Of a stretch of 22,605 bases of DNA, positions 11,508 through 19,689 are shown in pieces. The stretch comes from a virus, in the IMG/VR virus record IMGVR_UViG_3300035228_002195, positions 1 through 22,605 of that record; one strand, written 5' to 3'. The notes under the pieces are model-generated. The model was not told the origin of the DNA and did no database searches. It worked only from the letters and a program-made list of their open reading frames with translations. The translations under genes were made by a program, and so were the position numbers. Every line of letters starts with the position of its first letter. Positions within the stretch are counted from its first letter, which is position 1.

Positions 11508-12096
11508 TATTATCGCTATCGCTGGCCGAAAACAATCTGGTAAAACCACATCAGCTGAATTTATTAAAAAAACTTTTGAAGACAATAAATTAGGATCAGC
11601 TAAGATATACAACTTTGCAGATCCTTTGAAAAAAGATGTTTGTATGAATATTTTTGGCTTAACTTATCATCAGTGTTACGGTTCTGATGAATCTAAAAAC
11701 GAATTAGTAAATTGTTACTGGCCCGGAACTAACTCTAAAATGACAGCTAGAGAAGTAATGCAGTATGTTGGTACAGACGTTTTCAGAAAAATTCAACAGA
11801 ACGTATGGGCTGACGCAACTATTTATAAAATACAATCTGAAAAACCTGATCTAGCAATTGTTGCTGATTGTAGATTTCCTAACGAGGTTGAAGTTATTAC
11901 AGCGGTTTCTGGATTAGCCATTAAATTAAACAGAAATCCTTATAATTCTAATCATGCTAGTGAAGCAGCTCTCGATTCAGATGTTTATGATCAAACTAAT
12001 TTCGATCTTATTTTAAATAATCAAACATTAAATATACATCAGCAAAATATTTTTATTAAAGAATTTTTATCATCTAAAGGAGTCTTACCATTATAA
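11500..12096 (+). CDS. Deoxynucleoside monophosphate kinase
   Basis: A 198-residue P-loop kinase like T4 gene 1 dNMP kinase, which phosphorylates dNMPs to dNDPs. Visible: the strand and P-loop IIAIAGRKQSGKTT (GRKQSGKT at 9-16); the family's FADPLK segment around residue 40; 'TAREVMQYVGTDVFR', the substrate-binding helix; and 'IVADCRFPNEVEVI', the lid/Walker-B-like strand typical of this family. It completes the nucleotide-supply set with the deaminase and reductase, although it sits in the replisome block. The start overlaps the primase stop by eight bases and has no clear ribosome site, so coupling is probable. The last bases of the gene contain the ribosome site of the next gene. Confidence 0.87.
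   Translation: MCNIIAIAGRKQSGKTTSAEFIKKTFEDNKLGSAKIYNFADPLKKDVCMNIFGLTYHQCYGSDESKNELVNCYWPGTNSKMTAREVMQYVGTDVFRKIQQNVWADATIYKIQSEKPDLAIVADCRFPNEVEVITAVSGLAIKLNRNPYNSNHASEAALDSDVYDQTNFDLILNNQTLNIHQQNIFIKEFLSSKGVLPL
12076..12092 (+). promoter_or_regulatory. Shine-Dalgarno with ATT start codon
   Basis: AAAGGAG (12076-12082) is a perfect ribosome site with no ATG, GTG or TTG at the right distance in the nuclease frame. Seven bases later is ATT (12090), in frame with the nuclease. Only ATT/ATA codons (12090, 12093, 12096) are available between the upstream stop (12075-12077) and conserved-looking protein sequence. Confidence 0.55.
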
Positions 12097-13154
12097 TTAC
12101 ATACTTTAGAAGTTCTTCTTACGGAACACATAATATGTGTGAACAACAATACTTTATAGAATACGTATTGGGCCGTAGAGGTTCTTCTAACAAAAAAGCA
12201 GATAAAGGAACTATTGTACATAAAGTCTTAGAAATATTAGCTGTGATGAAAAAAGCACAACAAGACAATCTTAAAACTATTGAAGACGACATTATTGGTA
12301 CTATAGATTTGTCAGTATCAGATATGTTTGATGATAAATTTGTACTATCTTTATCAAATAGTATTTATAATTATTACACATCACAGTTTTCTCACCACGA
12401 ATGGTTTGACAAAGACAGAAAAGATTGTATACTATGGGTAAGCAAGACTCTTAGATCAAATAATAGATTGTTTGATCCTAGACTAAGGAATGTTTTTAGA
12501 GTAGAACAACACTTTGATTTTTCAATAGATAAAGATTGGGCCAAGTATATATACGATAATAATGGGGAAAAGCTAGAAGGACAGTTATCTGTTAAGGGTA
12601 CTATTGATTTGATTACTCAATTAGATGATAATACTTTAGAAATTGTAGATTGGAAAACAGGTAAGCGTTTAGATTGGGCCACGGGTGAAGAAAAAACTCA
12701 GAAAAAACTAGAGAAAGATCCACAATTAAAATTATATCATTATGCTATCAATAGATTATTTCCAGAATTTGATTATATTATCACTACCATTAACTTCATG
12801 AATGATGGAGGTCCATTTTCTGTGTGTTTTGATAATAGAGACAATGCCATTGAAGCTGAATATATGATACGACAAAAATACGAAAGAATTAAGCATACGA
12901 CCAAACCAGTATTAAGTAAAAGTTGGAAATGTACTAAATTGTGTCATTTCGGTAAAAACAACTTTATTACAGATGAGCATGTGCCGCCTATGTCTGAATA
13001 TAGAGACCATAAGTTAACTCGTAAAGACGAAATAATGACTCAATGCGAACAGATTAAACATGATACAGAAGTCAACGGTATGGATTATGTTGTAGAGCAT
13101 TATCAAATACCAGGATATTCAGTTAATACTTACAAAGCCCCAGGAGAAGTTTGA
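12090..13154 (+). CDS. RecB/Cas4-like PD-(D/E)XK exonuclease
   Basis: About 354 residues if it starts at ATT 12090; the first ATG is at 12135. It resembles RecB-type nuclease domains (Cas4, AddB C-terminus, phage exonucleases) that degrade or process DNA ends. Visible, numbered from ATT 12090: S-S-S-Y then M-C17-E-Q-Q-Y-F, the usual N-terminal helix; H44 in GTIVHKVLE; G-T-I-D173-L-I; E-I-V-D187-W-K189-T-G (the catalytic pair); and Q-L-K-L-Y-H-Y (the QxxxY motif). Near the end W-K-C281-x3-C285 recalls the Fe-S Cys cluster of Cas4/AddB, but not all four Cys are found, so a cluster is doubtful. The N-terminal helix lies upstream of the first ATG, which argues for the ATT start. Its place before the polymerase suggests a replication or recombination nuclease, not CRISPR. 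Stop overlaps the next ATG by one base. Confidence 0.82.
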   Translation: MIITYFRSSSYGTHNMCEQQYFIEYVLGRRGSSNKKADKGTIVHKVLEILAVMKKAQQDNLKTIEDDIIGTIDLSVSDMFDDKFVLSLSNSIYNYYTSQFSHHEWFDKDRKDCILWVSKTLRSNNRLFDPRLRNVFRVEQHFDFSIDKDWAKYIYDNNGEKLEGQLSVKGTIDLITQLDDNTLEIVDWKTGKRLDWATGEEKTQKKLEKDPQLKLYHYAINRLFPEFDYIITTINFMNDGGPFSVCFDNRDNAIEAEYMIRQKYERIKHTTKPVLSKSWKCTKLCHFGKNNFITDEHVPPMSEYRDHKLTRKDEIMTQCEQIKHDTEVNGMDYVVEHYQIPGYSVNTYKAPGEV

Positions 13155-15037
13155 TGTACACCCCATTGCATGTTCATACTCATTATAGCCTATTGGATGG
13201 TTTATCTAAACCTAATCAGATTGTTAACAGATGCAAAAAGTTAGGTATTAAATCTTGCGCCATTACAGATCATGGTACAATTTCTGGTAATATTGATTTT
13301 TATAAGACATTGAAAAAAAATGATATTAAACCAATTATGGGCTGCGAACTATATATTAGTACTCAAAGTGCTGACATTAAAGACAAATCTAATAGATCTC
13401 TTTCCCATATGGTAGTCCTTTGCAAAAATTATCAAGGATGGAAAGATTTAATTAATTTAGTTTCTCTATCAAACAGTTCTGAATATTTTTATCATAAGCC
13501 TAGACTTGATTTGCAATTAATAAAGAAACATTTAAAAGGTAATAAAAACTTAATATGTATTTCAGGGCATCCCGGATCGACACTTTGTAACGCTATATAT
13601 GATTTTGACACAGCGTCTATGAAAGAAGATTGGGAAAATAAAGCGTCAGAACATTTAAAGGTTTTACAAGATGTATTTGGTAAACAGAATGTTTTTGTCG
13701 AAATACAACTTATGGATACAGAAAATACAGATCAACAAACCATAGGTTTGAATTTAAGGAAATTTTCTAAGGATAGTAAAATACAAAGAGTAGCCACTAT
13801 CGATGCTCACTATTGCGAATTAGCAGATGCTGTCGATCAGAGAGTAGTATTATGCAGTTCTTTAAAAGTAACGCTACCTGAAATATCTCAAAAAATTATT
13901 AATAATGAGAAGATACCCATGTCAACCTTCTTTACTTCTGATAAATTTTATATCTTATCACCAAAAGAAATGGAAAAAATACATGACAAAATAGAATTAA
14001 GAAACACTACCAAGATTGACGATATGTGTGAAGACTATGATATTTTATTGCCTCCAACATTACCTAATTTTAACTGTCCAGATAAACAATCTTCTATTGA
14101 ATATATTACAGAACTTTGCAGACAAGGATGGAGAGAGAAAATACAAAATAATATCCCCAAAGAACAACATCAATCTTATGTAGACCGAGTTAAAAAAGAA
14201 TTTGAAGTATTAGAAGCAGCTAATTTAGCTAGTTACTTTTTAATAGTTAGAGATATTGTAAATTATGTTAAATCACAAAAATGTTTACCCGGTCCCGGCA
14301 GGGGTAGTGCTGCTGGGTGCTTAGTGTCATACTTAATAGGTATAACATCTATAGACCCTCTAAAATATAATCTAATTTTCGAAAGATTTTATAATACAGG
14401 AAGAAATACAGAAACACATATCTCTATGCCTGATATCGATGTAGATGTTCCAATTGAACATAGAGAAGACATTATTAATTATATAAAAAATAAATACGGT
14501 ATAGATAAAGTATCCCAAATGATTACGTTTAATACTCTGAAAGGTCGTGGAGCATTAAAAGAAGTATTAAGGGTATATGGTAATATTACTTTTGAAGAAA
14601 TGAATCGTATTACTAAAAGCATACCAGACGAAGCTAAGATTGCCGACGAATTACAAGAAATGAAAGGCGAAGACGGACAAGCTTCTATTATTAGGTGGGC
14701 TTTAGAAAATAACGGTAAGCAATTAAAAGAATGGTGCTATTTAGATGACGAAGGAGAGCTACAAGGCCCTCTTGCGAAAAGATTCGAACAGGCTATAAGA
14801 TTAGAGGGATCAAAATATAATCAGTCTAAACATGCTGCTGGTATAGCTATAGCAAACGAATCATTAAGTGGTATATGTCCTATGATTTGGGACTCCAAAA
14901 CAAAACAGAATATTGCAGGATTTGAAATGGTGGATCTCGAATCTATCGGAGTTATCAAATTTGATATTCTTGGTATTGCTCTTTTAGATAAAATTATGAA
15001 TGTTAAACATATACTTAAAGACAGGATTTTATTATAA
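13154..15037 (+). CDS. DNA polymerase III alpha, N-terminal part (PHP + palm)
   Basis: A 627-residue N-terminal portion of a family C polymerase (DnaE type). The PHP domain is intact: H6-V-H8-x-H10, ITDHG (39-41) and G-C-E65-L-Y. The palm follows, with GPGRGS (380-385, the nucleotide-binding loop) and PDIDVD (D427 and D429, catalytic Asps). The third catalytic Asp is D604 in KFDILGI. The protein stops 23 residues later, just after the helix that follows the third Asp. A complete DnaE continues with fingers and DNA-binding domains; here these are in the gene at 15909-17516. No intein motif is present at the C-terminus. ATG 13154 is preferred over TTG 13151 because AGGAG (13142-13146) is seven bases upstream. 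Function as a two-chain enzyme is inference; both parts keep their key residues. Confidence 0.9.
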   Translation: MYTPLHVHTHYSLLDGLSKPNQIVNRCKKLGIKSCAITDHGTISGNIDFYKTLKKNDIKPIMGCELYISTQSADIKDKSNRSLSHMVVLCKNYQGWKDLINLVSLSNSSEYFYHKPRLDLQLIKKHLKGNKNLICISGHPGSTLCNAIYDFDTASMKEDWENKASEHLKVLQDVFGKQNVFVEIQLMDTENTDQQTIGLNLRKFSKDSKIQRVATIDAHYCELADAVDQRVVLCSSLKVTLPEISQKIINNEKIPMSTFFTSDKFYILSPKEMEKIHDKIELRNTTKIDDMCEDYDILLPPTLPNFNCPDKQSSIEYITELCRQGWREKIQNNIPKEQHQSYVDRVKKEFEVLEAANLASYFLIVRDIVNYVKSQKCLPGPGRGSAAGCLVSYLIGITSIDPLKYNLIFERFYNTGRNTETHISMPDIDVDVPIEHREDIINYIKNKYGIDKVSQMITFNTLKGRGALKEVLRVYGNITFEEMNRITKSIPDEAKIADELQEMKGEDGQASIIRWALENNGKQLKEWCYLDDEGELQGPLAKRFEQAIRLEGSKYNQSKHAAGIAIANESLSGICPMIWDSKTKQNIAGFEMVDLESIGVIKFDILGIALLDKIMNVKHILKDRILL

Positions 15038-15213
15038 TGTTATTCGTAGATATTCCGGAAGGGAAACGCTTTCGACATAAAGATCAAACATATTTAAAAA
15101 TTAGAGACATAAAAGTATCCTGTTGTAAAATTACAGCTAATGCTATTAGACTAACAGACAACGAACAAGTATTATTTAAACACAAAACAGAAATAGGTGA
15201 CATAGATGATTAG
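15037..15213 (+). CDS. Small unknown phage protein inside the polymerase split
   Basis: A 58-residue ORF, starting on the stop of the polymerase N-part (TAATG, 15035-15039) and ending inside the exonuclease gene start. It begins MLFVDIPEGKRFRHKDQTYL and has the look of a small beta-barrel common in phages: P-x-G-K-x-F-x-x-x-x-x-x-Y-x-K near the start, then N-A-I-R-L-x-D in the second half. Its tight coupling to both neighbours suggests it is real. No function is known; it may stabilise the polymerase parts, but this is only a positional guess. Confidence 0.6.
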   Translation: MLFVDIPEGKRFRHKDQTYLKIRDIKVSCCKITANAIRLTDNEQVLFKHKTEIGDIDD

Positions 15214-15898
15214 AAATAAAATTTGTGTATTTGATTTTGAAACAGATGGAAAGAACCCTAAAGAATGCAGCCCTGTACAATTATCAGCTGTAATGGTCGA
15301 TCCATTTAAATTAGAAATTATTGATAAATCAGAATTTAATATTTTCCTGAAACCAGATAAACTAGTAAACACAGAGCTGGACAACCCTTATACTGATTCT
15401 GATATTTTGGAATGGCACGGAAAAGTAAAGGCAATATCGGCTGAAAAAGTATTGTCAGATTGGAAACAATATCCAGACCAAAAACAGGCATGGGGACAGT
15501 TTGTTTCTTATCTAGATAAATATCATTTAAACGGAGGTAGAAAATCTCAATTTACAGCACCTATTGCTGCAGGTTATAATATACTAAAATTTGATATGAC
15601 TATTGTTAATCGCCTCAGTGTGAAGTATGATAATGTGAATAAAGAACAAGAAACCTGTCTTTTTCATCCTAGAGACAAAGTAGACCTAATGCATGTTCTG
15701 TTCATGTGGACGTCCTATATTTCTGAAGTTAAATCCTTATCCCTGGATAATATGAGAGATTATTTAGGTCTTAGTAAGGATAATGCTCATGATGCCATTA
15801 AAGATGTTAAAGACTGTGCTGATATTTTAATTAGATTTTTAAGATTACATAAGGACCTAAGTAAGAAAATAAAGTTTAAGGACGCTTTCAAAAATTGA
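15206..15898 (+). CDS. DEDDh 3'-5' exonuclease (DnaQ-like, probable proofreader)
   Basis: A 230-residue exonuclease of the DnaQ/epsilon superfamily. All three Exo motifs are visible: D10-F-E12-T (Exo I), G-Y-N125-x4-D130 (Exo II), and H195-D-A-x-x-D200 (Exo III, with His, so DEDDh type). The metal-binding acids are D10, E12, D130 and D200. An insertion of about 40 residues between Exo I and Exo II makes it longer than the E. coli epsilon core. It lies between the two halves of the family C polymerase, so it is very probably the separate proofreading subunit. In Gram-positive PolC the exonuclease sits inside the polymerase chain; here it sits inside the polymerase locus as its own gene. Start ATG 15206 has AGGTGA five bases upstream and overlaps the previous gene by eight bases. 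Confidence 0.87.
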   Translation: MIRNKICVFDFETDGKNPKECSPVQLSAVMVDPFKLEIIDKSEFNIFLKPDKLVNTELDNPYTDSDILEWHGKVKAISAEKVLSDWKQYPDQKQAWGQFVSYLDKYHLNGGRKSQFTAPIAAGYNILKFDMTIVNRLSVKYDNVNKEQETCLFHPRDKVDLMHVLFMWTSYISEVKSLSLDNMRDYLGLSKDNAHDAIKDVKDCADILIRFLRLHKDLSKKIKFKDAFKN

Positions 15899-15908
15899 GT
15901 AAATACAA

Positions 15909-17516
15909 ATGAAAAATATATCTTTTGACGATTGTGGTTGCGTATTCCCAGTAAACGAGAATGACGGTATTGAATTAGACATAAATATAGAGAACATTGA
16001 TTTAACATGTTCTAGAACTTGGTCTATGATCGGAGAGGGTAATACTAAAGGGTGTTTCCAGCTAGAGTCTAGACTTGGTCAAACTATGGCTAAGAAACTA
16101 AAACCAGAAAATATAGAACAGTTATCTGCTTTAATCAGTATTATGAGGCCAGGATGTCTTGAAGCATATAGGAGCGGAAAATCTGTTAGTAATCACTACA
16201 TAGATAAAAAGAACGGAGATGAAGAAGTAGACTTCTTTCATCCTTCTCTTGAGTCTATTTTAGGCACAACTTATGGTGAAATGGTTTATCAGGAACAAGC
16301 TATGGAAATTTGTCAACAAATAGCTAACTTTGACTTAACAGAAGCGGACCAATTAAGAAAAGCTATTGGTAAAAAGAAGCCTGAAGAAATGGTAAAAATT
16401 AAGAAACTATTTTTAGATAAATCTAGTAAATTAAATATACTAACAAAAGAAGAAGCAGAAGAATTATTCGGATGGATTGAAAAGTCTCAAAGATATTCTT
16501 TCAATAAAAGCCATGCTGTAAGTTATGCTTATAACGCATACTTATCAGCTTACGTAAAAGCTCATTTCCCTAAACACTTCTTTGCATCATATCTAAAATT
16601 TGCTAAAGATAAACTTGATCCTCTTAGAGAAATTCAAGAATTAATTAGCAATGCTAATGAAATGGATATTGTAGTTAAAAAACCTGATTTACGAAAAACA
16701 TCTAAAGATTTTTTTATAGACAAAAACGGAGATATATATTTTGGTATGACGAATATCAAAGGACTAGGAAACTCTGTTTATGAAAAGTTACTTAAAACCA
16801 TTGGAGACCAAGATATATCTGAGATGAAATTTTTCGAGCTTTATTGTAAAATATTAAAAAATATTAATTCTACAGCAGCTAAAGCATTAATGGCGACAGG
16901 AAGCGTAGAACACACAGGACTTTCTCGTAATAGAATGCTATTTTATTATGAGTGTTTGTCAAACTTAACAGATAGAGAACTATCTATAGCGGAGACAATC
17001 TGTGATAAAGATATGAGTATTACACAAACTTTGGAATTATTAAAAAATAATACAGAGAAGAAACTTAATGTCAAACGTCAAAAGGTTGTAGAAACAGTGA
17101 TAAAATCCATAGAAAAACCAGCCTATGATCTTGAAGATTCTCCAGAATGGATTGCTAACACCGAACAGTTTTATCTTGGAGCCTCTATAACCTGTTTCAA
17201 AATAGATGGTTGCGATATTTATTCGGCCAATGTAGATTGTAAAGACTTGAATAAAGATAAACCTAACAAAGATCCTATATTAGGTGCGGAAGTAGTAGAT
17301 ATTAATGTTATTAAAACTAAAAGAGGCGTAAATCCAGGACAAGAAATGGCCTTTGTAAAAGTAATGGATTCTACAGGAACAGTGGATTTAGTGATATTTC
17401 CAGAAGAATATGACAAATATAAAGATTTAGTAATAAGCAATAATACACTTTTATTAAAACTAAATAGATCTAAGAATAAAGATTCTTTCGTCATAAAAAA
17501 GTGTTGGCAGGTCTAG
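15909..17516 (+). CDS. DNA polymerase III alpha, C-terminal part (fingers + OB)
   Basis: A 535-residue protein that continues a DnaE-type polymerase where the gene at 13154-15037 stops. After a short unique N-terminus (about 20 residues) come the segments of the DnaE fingers: F-Q-L-E-S (50-54), M-R-P-G, YQEQ (127-130), GKKKPEEM (154-161) and FNKSHA (198-203). A region equal to the C-terminal tandem helix-hairpin-helix part follows, then an OB fold ('VIKTKRGVNPGQEMAFVKVM', 'VDLVIFPEEYDKYK') near the end. Q373-T-L-E-L-L lies where DnaE proteins carry their clamp-binding motif and loosely fits its pattern; this is weak. There is no intein-like N-terminus. ATG 15909 is 10 bases after the exonuclease stop and lacks a clear ribosome site; an in-frame TAA at 15900 limits alternatives. 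Confidence 0.9.
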   Translation: MKNISFDDCGCVFPVNENDGIELDINIENIDLTCSRTWSMIGEGNTKGCFQLESRLGQTMAKKLKPENIEQLSALISIMRPGCLEAYRSGKSVSNHYIDKKNGDEEVDFFHPSLESILGTTYGEMVYQEQAMEICQQIANFDLTEADQLRKAIGKKKPEEMVKIKKLFLDKSSKLNILTKEEAEELFGWIEKSQRYSFNKSHAVSYAYNAYLSAYVKAHFPKHFFASYLKFAKDKLDPLREIQELISNANEMDIVVKKPDLRKTSKDFFIDKNGDIYFGMTNIKGLGNSVYEKLLKTIGDQDISEMKFFELYCKILKNINSTAAKALMATGSVEHTGLSRNRMLFYYECLSNLTDRELSIAETICDKDMSITQTLELLKNNTEKKLNVKRQKVVETVIKSIEKPAYDLEDSPEWIANTEQFYLGASITCFKIDGCDIYSANVDCKDLNKDKPNKDPILGAEVVDINVIKTKRGVNPGQEMAFVKVMDSTGTVDLVIFPEEYDKYKDLVISNNTLLLKLNRSKNKDSFVIKKCWQV

Positions 17517-17519
17517 TGC

Positions 17520-17547
17520 TTGACTTTACCTGAGACAGCCTTAGTAT
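17520..17547 (+). promoter_or_regulatory. sigma70-like promoter before ssb
   Basis: TTGACT (17520-17525), a 16-base spacer and TAGTAT (17542-17547), followed by ATAG. It sits in the 77-base gap after the polymerase C-part stop and would give a leader of about 40 bases ahead of ssb. The boxes are almost the same as those of the promoter at 563-591 (TTGACT, TAGAAT). A private promoter would suit the high demand for SSB. Confidence 0.55.
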
Positions 17548-17593
17548 ATAGTGTGAGTAAATTTTAAACCCTTTTTGATTTTAGGAGATGACT

Positions 17594-18001
17594 ATGAATT
17601 TAGTAATTTTGAGAGGTAATTTAGCTAGAGACCCAGAACTAAGATATGTAAGTCCTTCCGGAAGAAAGACTGCTGTCATTAATTTTACAGTTGCTGTTTC
17701 TAGAGAATTTACCAAAGCTAATGGAGATAAAGACAAGGTCACAACATTTGTAAATTGTGAAGCTTGGGATACTGGCGCAGAAGCTATTTCTCAATCTTTC
17801 CGTAAGGGTGATTTGGTTATGGTTGAAGGTTCTCTTAGGAATGATACATGGGAAAAGGATGGCGTTAAGAGATCTACAATGAAGATTAGAGTAAATAATT
17901 TTGCTCGTATCCAAAAGGTAGCCAAGTCAACAGGAGCTAAAGCTACTGAGACAGAGGATACTACTGCCAAAGAATCAAGCGAAGAAGTTGTAGCTTTTTA
18001 G
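17594..18001 (+). CDS. ssb: Single-stranded DNA-binding protein
   Basis: A 135-residue SSB of the bacterial OB-fold family. It begins MNLVILRGNLARDPELRY, the family's usual start, and continues with V-I-N-F-T-V-A-V and F-V-N-C-E-A-W (the Trp of the DNA-binding face). The C-terminal 30 residues are acidic and disordered (E-T-E-D, E-S-S-E-E) and end in V-V-A-F, equal to the acidic tip with terminal Phe that recruits partner proteins. The AGGAG (17583-17587) touches the first ATG (17588) directly but lies six bases before ATG 17594, and the family begins M-N-x-V, so 17594 is chosen. It has its own promoter and a strong hairpin after the stop, so it may be transcribed separately. Confidence 0.93.
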   Translation: MNLVILRGNLARDPELRYVSPSGRKTAVINFTVAVSREFTKANGDKDKVTTFVNCEAWDTGAEAISQSFRKGDLVMVEGSLRNDTWEKDGVKRSTMKIRVNNFARIQKVAKSTGAKATETEDTTAKESSEEVVAF

Positions 18002-18032
18002 TTTAACTTACTTATGGGTAGTTGGGAAGAGA

Positions 18033-18058
18033 CAGGGAGCCCCGCAAGGGGCTCTCTG
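18033..18058 (+). other. Strong GCAA-tetraloop hairpin after ssb
   Basis: An 11-bp stem (18033-18043 pairing with 18048-18058, one G-U pair) is closed by C-G and capped by a GCAA loop, a GNRA tetraloop. Eight of the pairs are G-C, in a very AT-rich genome. No U-tract follows (CATATTATATG), so it is not a standard Rho-independent terminator. It ends nine bases before the next ATG (18067), so it could stabilise the ssb mRNA 3' end, slow transcription, or hide the ribosome site of the glycosyltransferase. Confidence 0.7.
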
Positions 18059-18066
18059 CATATTAT

Positions 18067-19689
18067 ATGAAAAAAAATAAATACAAAAAGAAAATATTAT
18101 TTTGCTCTGAATCTGGTGATATAAATTCAGGATATGGAAAATATACAAAAGCTATTTTATCCAGACTGTATGACACAAATAAATACAAAATAGCAGAATT
18201 ATCATCTTATAAAACTGTTGATACGCCTAATAATTATCCGTGGAAAGTATATCCTAATGCAGTAAACGAAAAGGATGAAAGATTCGCTCAATACAACGCT
18301 AATACAACCAATCAGTTTGGTCAATGGAGATTGGATTTGGTTTTAGCTGATTTTAAACCTGATATAGTAATTGATTTTCGTGATATTTTTATGTCTTTAT
18401 TTGAAGGAGCTTCTGTTTTTAGAGAATATTTTCATTGGATTCTTGCTCCAACTATAGATTCGTTTCCTATTAGAACGGAATGGGTTGATGGTCTTAAAAA
18501 CTGTGATACTTTATTGACACACACTCATTGGACTAAAGATCAAATAGAATCTAGATACGGCATTCCTGTATCGGGAATAGTTAAAGACTCAATAGACACC
18601 AATACTTTTCTGCCTAAAAATAAAATAGCTCTTAGGAATAGATTTCAACTTTCTCCTAGTAGTTTTATTATTGGTTCCGTTATGAGAAATCAGAAAAGAA
18701 AACTAATACCCGATTTATTAAAAATTATTAAAAAAATATCTGAAAACAATAAAGACACTTATCTATATTTACATACAAGTTATCCTGAAGCTATGGGTTG
18801 GGATATTCCAGATTTACTTCTAGAATTTGATGTTCAAAATAATGTGTTGTTTACCTACAGATGTAATAATTGTAATCACTGGGAGCCTTCTATATGGAAA
18901 GGACCACAAGCAGTTTGTCCTAAATGCTCTCAGAAAAAAATGGTATTAGCTAATGTATCTCATGGTGTTACAGATCAACAACTAAGCGATATATATAATA
19001 TGTTTGATGTTTACATACAATATGCTATTTGTGAAGGTTTTGGTATACCTCCCCTAGAAGCAGCCTCTTGCGGTATTCCCGTTGTCTCTATAGATCATGG
19101 CTCTATGAAAGAAGTTTGCAACAGCGTAGGAGGAACCAGTGTTCCGTTGTCTCAAATTTTTAGAGAACAAGAAAACAACTCTGATAGAGTATATCCCGAC
19201 AATCAAGAAACAATTAAAATAATTCAGGACATAATAGATCAACCAAAGTTCACACTAATGGAATTAGGAGAGCTTCATAGAGAAAAGGTGATAGAAAATC
19301 ATTCATGGGATAAAACAGCTAAAGAATTTGAAAAAATTATAGATAATACTAAAATTATTAATTATCATGGTAGATGGTCTGCCCTAAGCTCTAATCATTT
19401 TCAAAAGATTAATAAAACTATGCCAGATATAGAGAGTAATAGAAAGTATGTAAATTACATTATTGATCATGTTTTAGAAATGCCTAAGCTAAAGGAAAGC
19501 TTTTTTATACAACAACTGGTTATGGCCCTTGATAATGGCTATATTTTATCTGAAGGCAAAATACTACCTTATGGTAAAGAGGATGCTACCAAAATATTGG
19601 AAGTATTATTCAATAATAAAAAAATGTTACATCAGTTTCTAACTGACAACACAATTATTAAACAAAGAGACTTTTTAAATTATAAATAG
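18067..19689 (+). CDS. GT-B (GT4-like) glycosyltransferase with inserted zinc ribbon
   Basis: A 540-residue nucleotide-sugar glycosyltransferase. The N-terminal Rossmann domain begins ILFCSES with G-Y-G-K-Y; the C-terminal domain carries the family's E-x7-E motif, E323-GFGIPPL-E331, followed by ASCGIPVVS, which grips the sugar-nucleotide. Inside the C-terminal domain there is an unusual insertion, C266-x2-C269-x14-C284-x2-C287, a zinc ribbon, between 'NNVLFTYR' and 'LANVSHGVTDQQLSDIYNMF'. After about residue 430 a further C-terminal region of about 110 residues has no recognised family. The frame opens earlier (18022), but that stretch is the hairpin; ATG 18067 begins MKKNKYKKK just before the first beta strand. 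Probably builds or modifies a surface glycan. Substrate unknown. Confidence 0.85.
   Translation: MKKNKYKKKILFCSESGDINSGYGKYTKAILSRLYDTNKYKIAELSSYKTVDTPNNYPWKVYPNAVNEKDERFAQYNANTTNQFGQWRLDLVLADFKPDIVIDFRDIFMSLFEGASVFREYFHWILAPTIDSFPIRTEWVDGLKNCDTLLTHTHWTKDQIESRYGIPVSGIVKDSIDTNTFLPKNKIALRNRFQLSPSSFIIGSVMRNQKRKLIPDLLKIIKKISENNKDTYLYLHTSYPEAMGWDIPDLLLEFDVQNNVLFTYRCNNCNHWEPSIWKGPQAVCPKCSQKKMVLANVSHGVTDQQLSDIYNMFDVYIQYAICEGFGIPPLEAASCGIPVVSIDHGSMKEVCNSVGGTSVPLSQIFREQENNSDRVYPDNQETIKIIQDIIDQPKFTLMELGELHREKVIENHSWDKTAKEFEKIIDNTKIINYHGRWSALSSNHFQKINKTMPDIESNRKYVNYIIDHVLEMPKLKESFFIQQLVMALDNGYILSEGKILPYGKEDATKILEVLFNNKKMLHQFLTDNTIIKQRDFLNYK

What the first reader, a model, noticed from the sequence alone, without database searches (positions are those of the whole stretch)
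13154..17516. Family C DNA polymerase split into two genes with the exonuclease gene between them, without an intein
Seen: the N-part stops 23 residues after the third catalytic Asp (D604) and the C-part starts just before the fingers (FQLES), with no conserved segment missing. A 58-residue gene and a DEDDh exonuclease lie between. Known: cyanobacterial DnaE is split by a split intein, at YCFNKSHS; here that motif is whole (residues 197-203 of the C-part), and neither half has intein motifs. PolC carries its exonuclease inside the chain. Inference: the enzyme works as a hetero-oligomer, PHP-palm plus fingers-OB plus proofreader, from adjacent genes. The break falls in the linker between palm and fingers, a place tolerant to cutting.
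Basis: partly seen in the sequence, partly recalled or inferred. Interest (0 to 1): 0.75.

Follow-up and report, generated by a model that had tools for sequence, protein, structure and literature searches.

The report
Phage replicative polymerase in two pieces
A whole lineage of uncultivated phages makes its replicative DNA polymerase as two separate proteins, cut between the catalytic palm and the fingers and not rejoined by any recognisable intein or intron, usually with a proofreading-type nuclease gene in the gap; the halves most likely have to dock to form one active site.

Summary
The window carries a DnaE-type family C polymerase as two genes: N (13154-15037; PHP, thumb and palm with all three catalytic Asp) and C (15909-17516; fingers, HhH, OB). 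Together they cover DnaE with no conserved segment missing. A 58-codon gene and a DEDDh exonuclease lie between. It is not an assembly error: all 174 related viral loci with N, exonuclease and C (96 distinct exonuclease sequences) keep the break and gene order, and none has a fusion. Palm Asps (92/92) and exonuclease residues (98/98) are invariant, and 20 large related contigs hold one finger domain each and no detected family A or B polymerase. No intein or intron fits at the break. Some relatives do carry inteins elsewhere in the same genes, including split inteins at the cyanobacterial DnaE site; never at this break. A distant syntenic cousin (L214) has the same break but RNase HII and a zinc ribbon between the halves, so the break is ancestral and the insert exchangeable. 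Best explanation: a non-covalent two-chain polymerase with a separate proofreader. Intein-free phage splits are known elsewhere, and phage phiT1 is cut at this same place, so this is a new variant, not a new kind.

The parts
12135..13154 (+). PD-(D/E)XK nuclease gene, conserved upstream neighbour of the split polymerase (context)
   Evidence: Pfam PDDEXK_1 1.7e-15; upstream of N in nearly every related locus and in cousin L214
13154..15037 (+). Polymerase N-part: PHP + thumb + palm, 627 aa from the ATG (628 aa from TTG 13151); ends 23 residues after the third catalytic Asp
   Evidence: PHP 8e-42, DNA_pol3_alpha 8e-71; aligns to T. aquaticus DnaE 7-637; stop overlaps the start of the next gene
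14432..14440 (+). Codons of catalytic Asp D428 and D430 (motif MPDIDVDVP; TTG numbering)
   Evidence: invariant in 92/92 N-parts
14963..14965 (+).
   Evidence: invariant in 92/92
15037..15213 (+). 58-aa SH3-like small protein with conserved SCC motif; function unknown
   Evidence: SCC- or NCC-bearing small ORF in 90 of 92 loci, absent in L018/L019; AlphaFold2 mean pLDDT 95, small beta fold; top Foldseek hits EF-P/eIF5A domains but none significant, best E 0.35
15206..15898 (+). DEDDh 3'-5' exonuclease, 230 aa (D10, E12, D130, H195, D200)
   Evidence: RNase_T 2.8e-9, phrog_192 'DNA polymerase exonuclease subunit' 2e-18, profile match to the PolC exonuclease domain 2p1j 2.7e-7; five catalytic residues invariant in 98/98
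15909..17516 (+). Polymerase C-part: fingers + HhH + OB fold, 535 aa
   Evidence: DNA_pol3_finger 3e-45, HHH_6 6e-8, OB 7e-5; Foldseek of the model to DNA Pol III alpha, best E 3e-22
15909..15974 (+). N-terminal extension of the C-part before its DnaE homology: predicted beta-hairpin with CxC (C9, C11)
   Evidence: C9/C11 in 85 of 96, later C34 in 96 of 96; modelled as strands 3-6 and 11-15, pLDDT about 85; CTC...LEC also in cousin L214
17588..18001 (+). SSB-like gene, conserved downstream neighbour (context)
   Evidence: follows C in nearly all loci whose contig reaches that far

Best explanation
Shown: in this phage lineage one DnaE-type replicative polymerase is encoded as two separate genes, cut in the linker between palm and fingers, in an operon-like array nuclease - N - small SH3-like protein - DEDDh exonuclease - C - SSB. 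Inferred: the chains are made side by side from one message and dock non-covalently. N supplies the metal-binding palm and C the positively charged fingers and DNA-binding domains, so neither half should polymerise alone. The DEDDh protein most likely proofreads for this enzyme, as epsilon does for bacterial DnaE but encoded in the gap; an intact PHP site in most members may add a second exonuclease, lost in one subclade. The break was inherited from an ancestor shared with cousin L214, and the genes lodged in it changed later.
For: Halves contiguous and complete against DnaE structures. All 174 loci with N, exonuclease and C keep the break, none is fused, 96 distinct exonuclease proteins. N, exonuclease and C evolve alike: dN 0.1-0.23 with saturated or near-saturated dS between the window and its nearest relatives. 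Palm Asps 92/92, tested finger basic residues invariant or nearly so, exonuclease DEDHD 98/98. In 20 contigs of 110-233 kb the finger domain occurs once and no family A or B polymerase is detected; 13 were also searched with DNA_pol3_alpha and gave one polymerase each, in fragments where frameshifts or an intein break it. No room for an intron or intein: L018 reads N-stop-ATG-exonuclease with C overlapping; Rfam finds nothing. Other cuts in these same genes carry inteins, this one never does. Cousin L214, supported sister (100/99), has the same break, CxC extension and flanking synteny. phiT1 is cut at the same place.
Against: No interaction, expression or activity data, and complex modelling was not available. 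The exonuclease link rests on gene order; L214 has RNase HII in the gap and no recognisable copy of this exonuclease in the 11 kb examined. The 58-aa protein is dispensable in L018/L019. In one subclade (L009, L035, L036, L050, L051, L056, L062) several PHP ligands are gone, so PHP exonuclease activity is not general. The viral records carry no completeness estimate, so a second polymerase outside the contigs cannot be fully excluded.
Confidence: 0.8

Rival explanations
1. The halves are joined after all: by RNA splicing, programmed frameshifting or bypass, or an unrecognised split intein.
For: Relatives use split inteins at two other sites of the same polymerase; the genes abut or overlap.
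Against: No intron model hits and no non-coding space: L018 is N-TAA-ATG-exonuclease with C overlapping. Only a few residues of N and about 20 of C lie outside DnaE homology, too little for intein halves. The window frames differ (N and exonuclease frame 2, small gene 1, C 0), so joining would need several recoding events.
Confidence: 0.05
2. The two genes are remnants with separate roles (N as PHP nuclease, C as DNA-binding protein) and the phage uses the host polymerase.
For: Neither half can polymerise alone by known family C mechanism.
Against: All catalytic Asps and finger residues are kept under strong constraint in both halves, and 20 large relatives have no other detected A or B polymerase.
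Confidence: 0.07
3. The polymerase is two-chain, but the exonuclease and 58-aa protein are only operon neighbours and not part of the enzyme.
For: L214 has RNase HII and a zinc ribbon in the gap; L018/L019 lack the 58-aa gene; other genes insert here too in L010, L033/L034 and L171.
Against: The exonuclease sits between N and C in all 174 loci, including those with extra insertions, resembles polymerase proofreaders and keeps its catalytic residues 98/98. A mirror-tree check (partial r 0.59 with N and with C, given SSB) is only weak support.
Confidence: 0.25
4. Assembly artefact or sequencing frameshift.
For: One record (L025) does have a frameshift-broken N.
Against: L025 is 99.7% identical to intact L032 with 15 gap openings, a local error. 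The palm/fingers break itself recurs in 174 loci from many metagenomes and in phiT1.
Confidence: 0.005

Closest known systems
Bacterial DnaE (Pol III alpha; T. aquaticus 2hpi, E. coli 5fku)
   Same: domain order PHP-thumb/palm-fingers-HhH-OB and catalytic residues; separate DEDDh exonuclease as with epsilon
   Different: two chains; C ends just after the OB fold (window C516 matches E. coli about 1050 of 1160), so the C-terminal domain of E. coli DnaE is missing; no beta clamp found in 20 relatives
Rossellomorea phage phiT1 (PV767480) gp20/gp19/gp18
   Same: family C polymerase cut at the same palm/fingers place (N ends at window N622, C starts at C23) with a small ORF between, annotated as two alpha-subunit genes
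   Different: no exonuclease in the gap, no CxC extension, unrelated 49-aa ORF; about 32-37% identity. Common or independent origin not resolved: it falls outside the split clade in the ML tree, but the AU test does not reject grouping (p 0.109)
Microbacterium cluster EF phages and other PHP|palm splits (Gilda, Gordonia BiteSize, Mycobacterium Nilo)
   Same: intein-free two-gene family C polymerase; PMC7302621 remarks on two genes related to the Pol III alpha subunit in cluster EF
   Different: in Gilda, BiteSize and Nilo the cut is between PHP and palm (about window N250-316), so the active site stays in one chain; the cut in cluster EF was not mapped
Bacillus phage Jayan (PQ299153)
   Same: two polymerase genes with a small ORF between
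   Different: cut inside the palm (N416/N425), looks recent: phage PS1 has the unsplit gene
Cyanobacterial DnaE with split intein
   Same: split family C polymerase
   Different: there the chains are trans-spliced at the FNK|S site; here that site is whole and no intein is present at the break. Relatives L147 and L158 do carry split inteins at that very site
PolC
   Same: polymerase plus DEDDh exonuclease; our exonuclease's best PDB profile hit is a PolC exonuclease domain
   Different: PolC is one chain with the exonuclease inside PHP and OB at the N-terminus (PMC3919608); N scores far better to DnaE and C matches only DnaE by sequence

Membership tests
DnaE-type family C DNA polymerase | PHP, palm, fingers, HhH and C-terminal OB homologous to DnaE | tested here: met
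DnaE-type family C DNA polymerase | three catalytic Asp residues in the palm | tested here: met
   92/92
DnaE-type family C DNA polymerase | one continuous chain, or chains rejoined by an intein | tested here: not met
   two ORFs in 174/174 loci, no fusion, no intein at the break
DnaE-type family C DNA polymerase | DNA synthesis activity | not testable with these tools
   needs purified proteins
DnaE-type family C DNA polymerase | C-terminal domain after the OB fold and sliding-clamp binding | tested here: inconclusive
   C ends right after OB; no bacterial beta clamp in 20 records; clamp-binding peptide and other clamp types not tested
PolC | exonuclease inserted in PHP and OB at the N-terminus of one chain | tested here: not met
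   exonuclease is a separate ORF between palm and fingers genes; OB at the C-terminus
Cyanobacterial split-intein DnaE | intein halves at the break | tested here: not met
   no room or motifs; FNK|S site whole
Intron-interrupted polymerase gene | intron RNA between exons | tested here: not met
   no Rfam hit; genes abut or overlap
Intein-free split phage Pol III alpha | two adjacent genes for complementary parts of a family C polymerase without an intein | tested here: met
   compared with BiteSize, Nilo, Gilda, Jayan and phiT1
DEDDh exonuclease (DnaQ/RNase T) | D-x-E, D, H-x(4)-D catalytic residues | tested here: met
   DEDHD 98/98

The most novel reading that the evidence does not exclude
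An obligate multi-chain replicase whose nucleotidyl-transfer site is assembled between two chains, with the in-gap exonuclease as a structural subunit and the CxC hairpin (plus invariant C34) of the C-part as a new docking element; the ancestral cut may be a fractured-gene site (split intein plus homing endonuclease, as relatives still carry at other sites) that lost its intein after the halves had come to assemble without it.
Probability: 0.2. Interest if true: 0.75.

Novelty: new variant of a known kind. Interest (0 to 1): 0.55.

Why it matters
Replicative DNA polymerases are normally one continuous catalytic chain. A lineage-wide, ancestral break between palm and fingers, kept without splicing, suggests that a family C active site can be assembled from two chains. 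It offers a natural split-polymerase design, a way to study palm-fingers communication and proofreader coupling, and a natural comparison in which other cuts of the same genes are accompanied by split inteins while this one is not.

Tried and rejected
Intron: Rfam negative and no space. Split intein at the break: no room. Fusion in any relative: none in 174 loci. Second polymerase: no A or B detected, one finger domain each in 20 large records. Exonuclease relatives among cultured phages: no tblastn hit at 1e-5, so they did not help place the phage. T4-like capsid Gp23: no hit, but the control rang nowhere, so uninformative. Taking phiT1 as plainly independent: the ML tree separates it, but the AU test does not reject grouping. 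Mirror-tree correlations follow shared ancestry and are not used as proof of contact. The 58-aa protein's Foldseek hits are not significant. L025's broken N was dismissed as local frameshifts. Paper searches for split family C phage polymerases found only the cluster EF remark; most subscription journals are not in the library.

Full report
What is there. The window is the whole of a 22.6-kb viral record with no tRNA gene. Between a PD-(D/E)XK nuclease gene (12135-13154) and an SSB-like gene (17588-18001) lie four abutting or overlapping genes: N (ATG 13154, or TTG 13151, to 15037), a 58-codon gene (15037-15213), an exonuclease (15206-15898) and C (15909-17516). N carries PHP and DNA_pol3_alpha; C carries the finger domain, HHH_6 and an OB fold; the exonuclease is RNase_T; the 58-aa protein has no Pfam or PHROG match.

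Completeness. N aligns to T. aquaticus DnaE 7-326 and 380-637, and C to 635-948 plus, weakly, the OB region at 1034-1101. With a profile of the split family, unsplit polymerases (E. coli, a Chitinophagia chromosome, gut phages, Bacillus phages) run from about N612-622 into about C15-27 with no conserved segment between. The AlphaFold2 model of C matches Pol III alpha structures in Foldseek (best E 3e-22; the modest TM-score reflects uncertain domain placement). By alignment the break falls near E. coli residues 576-584, in the palm-to-fingers linker.

It is not an accident of this contig. Scans of IMG/VR with N, C and an exonuclease alignment returned 16, 143 and 434 relatives (at most 80 kept per scan). 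All 174 loci in which N, exonuclease and C were found have them in that order, and no two of them share an ORF; they hold 96 distinct exonuclease proteins, 78 clusters at 90% identity. One of them is an 8-kb contig binned with a Chitinophagia genome, whose own DnaE is a normal 1229-residue frame. The only N broken by scattered frameshifts (L025) is 99.7% identical to intact L032 with 15 gap openings, so a local error.

It is maintained. Between the window and its nearest relatives dN is about 0.14-0.18 (N), 0.11-0.18 (exonuclease) and 0.22 (C) while synonymous sites are saturated or nearly so (the script stopped after seven pairs on a division by zero). Palm Asps are invariant in 92/92, basic residues tested in the fingers in 92-96 of 96, and exonuclease D10/E12/D130/H195/D200 in 98/98. 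PHP ligands are kept in most members; in one subclade (L009, L035, L036, L050, L051, L056, L062) several are lost, while apparent changes at the very N-terminus of others may be start-site or alignment effects. In 20 contigs of 110-233 kb the finger domain occurs once and no family A or B polymerase is detected; a DNA_pol3_alpha search of 13 of them found one polymerase each, broken by frameshifts in G003 and by an intein in G013. These records have no completeness estimate.

Not an intron, not an intein. Rfam finds nothing in 12000-18500. In L018 the N stop is followed directly by the exonuclease ATG and the exonuclease end overlaps C, leaving no room. N ends a few residues, and C begins about 20, beyond the DnaE homology. 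The lineage does carry inteins elsewhere in the same genes: an HNH-containing cis-intein at RPGC|ISGD...VHN|CLEA in C (L012, L154); split inteins with a free-standing endonuclease ORF at GPGRG|C...VHN|SAAG in N (L016, L055); and split inteins at SFNK|...|SHAV in C (L147, L158; the second half was read only in L147), the cyanobacterial DnaE site. So other cuts in these genes are accompanied by inteins; only the palm/fingers cut never is. This is the strongest argument that the halves work without being joined; the intein calls rest on reading terminal motifs, not on a profile search.

Age and what sits in the gap. L214 is a distant cousin (N 31%, C 28% identity) syntenic with the window: dNMP kinase-like, PD-(D/E)XK, N, C and two glycosyltransferase-like genes correspond. 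It has the same break and a CxC-bearing extension on C, but between the halves lie a 110-aa ORF, an RNase HII-like gene and a zinc ribbon (RNase HII assigned by motif reading), and no copy of this exonuclease is recognisable in the 11 kb examined. L214 groups with the split clade at 100/99. The break is therefore probably older than the exonuclease's residence in it, or the exonuclease was lost from L214. Other insertions at the gap occur in L033/L034 (an extra ORF), L010/L011 and L171.

Other phage splits. Gordonia BiteSize, Mycobacterium Nilo and Microbacterium Gilda are cut between PHP and palm, Bacillus Jayan inside the palm. PMC7302621 notes two alpha-subunit-related genes in Microbacterium cluster EF. 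Rossellomorea phage phiT1 is cut at the same palm/fingers place (N to window N622, C from C23) with an unrelated 49-aa ORF between. It lies outside the split clade in the ML tree, but holding them together is not rejected (p 0.109), so independence is unproven.

Accessory parts. The exonuclease is nearest in profile to a PolC exonuclease domain and to phrog_192. The 58-aa protein folds confidently as a small beta fold (pLDDT 95); Foldseek's top hits are EF-P/eIF5A domains, none significant. C begins with a predicted beta-hairpin carrying CxC in 85 of 96 loci, and C34 is invariant; a docking role is speculation.

Mechanism and confidence. Shown: gene structure, conservation, absence of a joining device at the break. 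Inferred: co-translated N and C dock into one polymerase (0.8); the exonuclease proofreads for it (about 0.65); role of the 58-aa protein unknown. No binding or activity has been tested.

Noticed in passing
L012 10739-13006, L154, L147, L158, L016, L055: Relatives carry cis-inteins (HNH) and split inteins with free-standing endonuclease ORFs in the polymerase genes, two of them at the cyanobacterial DnaE split-intein site. Seen by reading terminal motifs.
   Followed up: partly
G005 (L196 11665-15952) and other large related contigs: A close relative carries PSCyt1/PSCyt2/PSD1 and DUF1501 genes typical of Planctomycetota/Verrucomicrobiota, and DUF1501 occurs in 7 of 21 records; a hint at the hosts or an odd phage-borne metabolic gene set.
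   Followed up: partly
L009, L035, L036, L050, L051, L056, L062: A subclade has lost several PHP metal ligands while the DEDDh exonuclease stays intact.
   Followed up: partly
L214 4117-4975: Cousin phage with an RNase HII-like gene and a zinc ribbon (similar to the window's 5118-5468 gene) between the polymerase halves.
   Followed up: partly
L008 5238-7235: The neighbouring PD-(D/E)XK nuclease ORF carries an in-frame insertion of about 945 bases, possibly an intein.
   Followed up: no
L199 5718-18332: A 4205-codon ORF in relative G005, in the stretch downstream of the terminase gene.
   Followed up: no
PQ299153 (Bacillus phage Jayan) against PQ758588 (PS1): Apparently recent split of a family C polymerase inside the palm, with a 76-aa ORF between, next to an unsplit relative.
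   Followed up: partly
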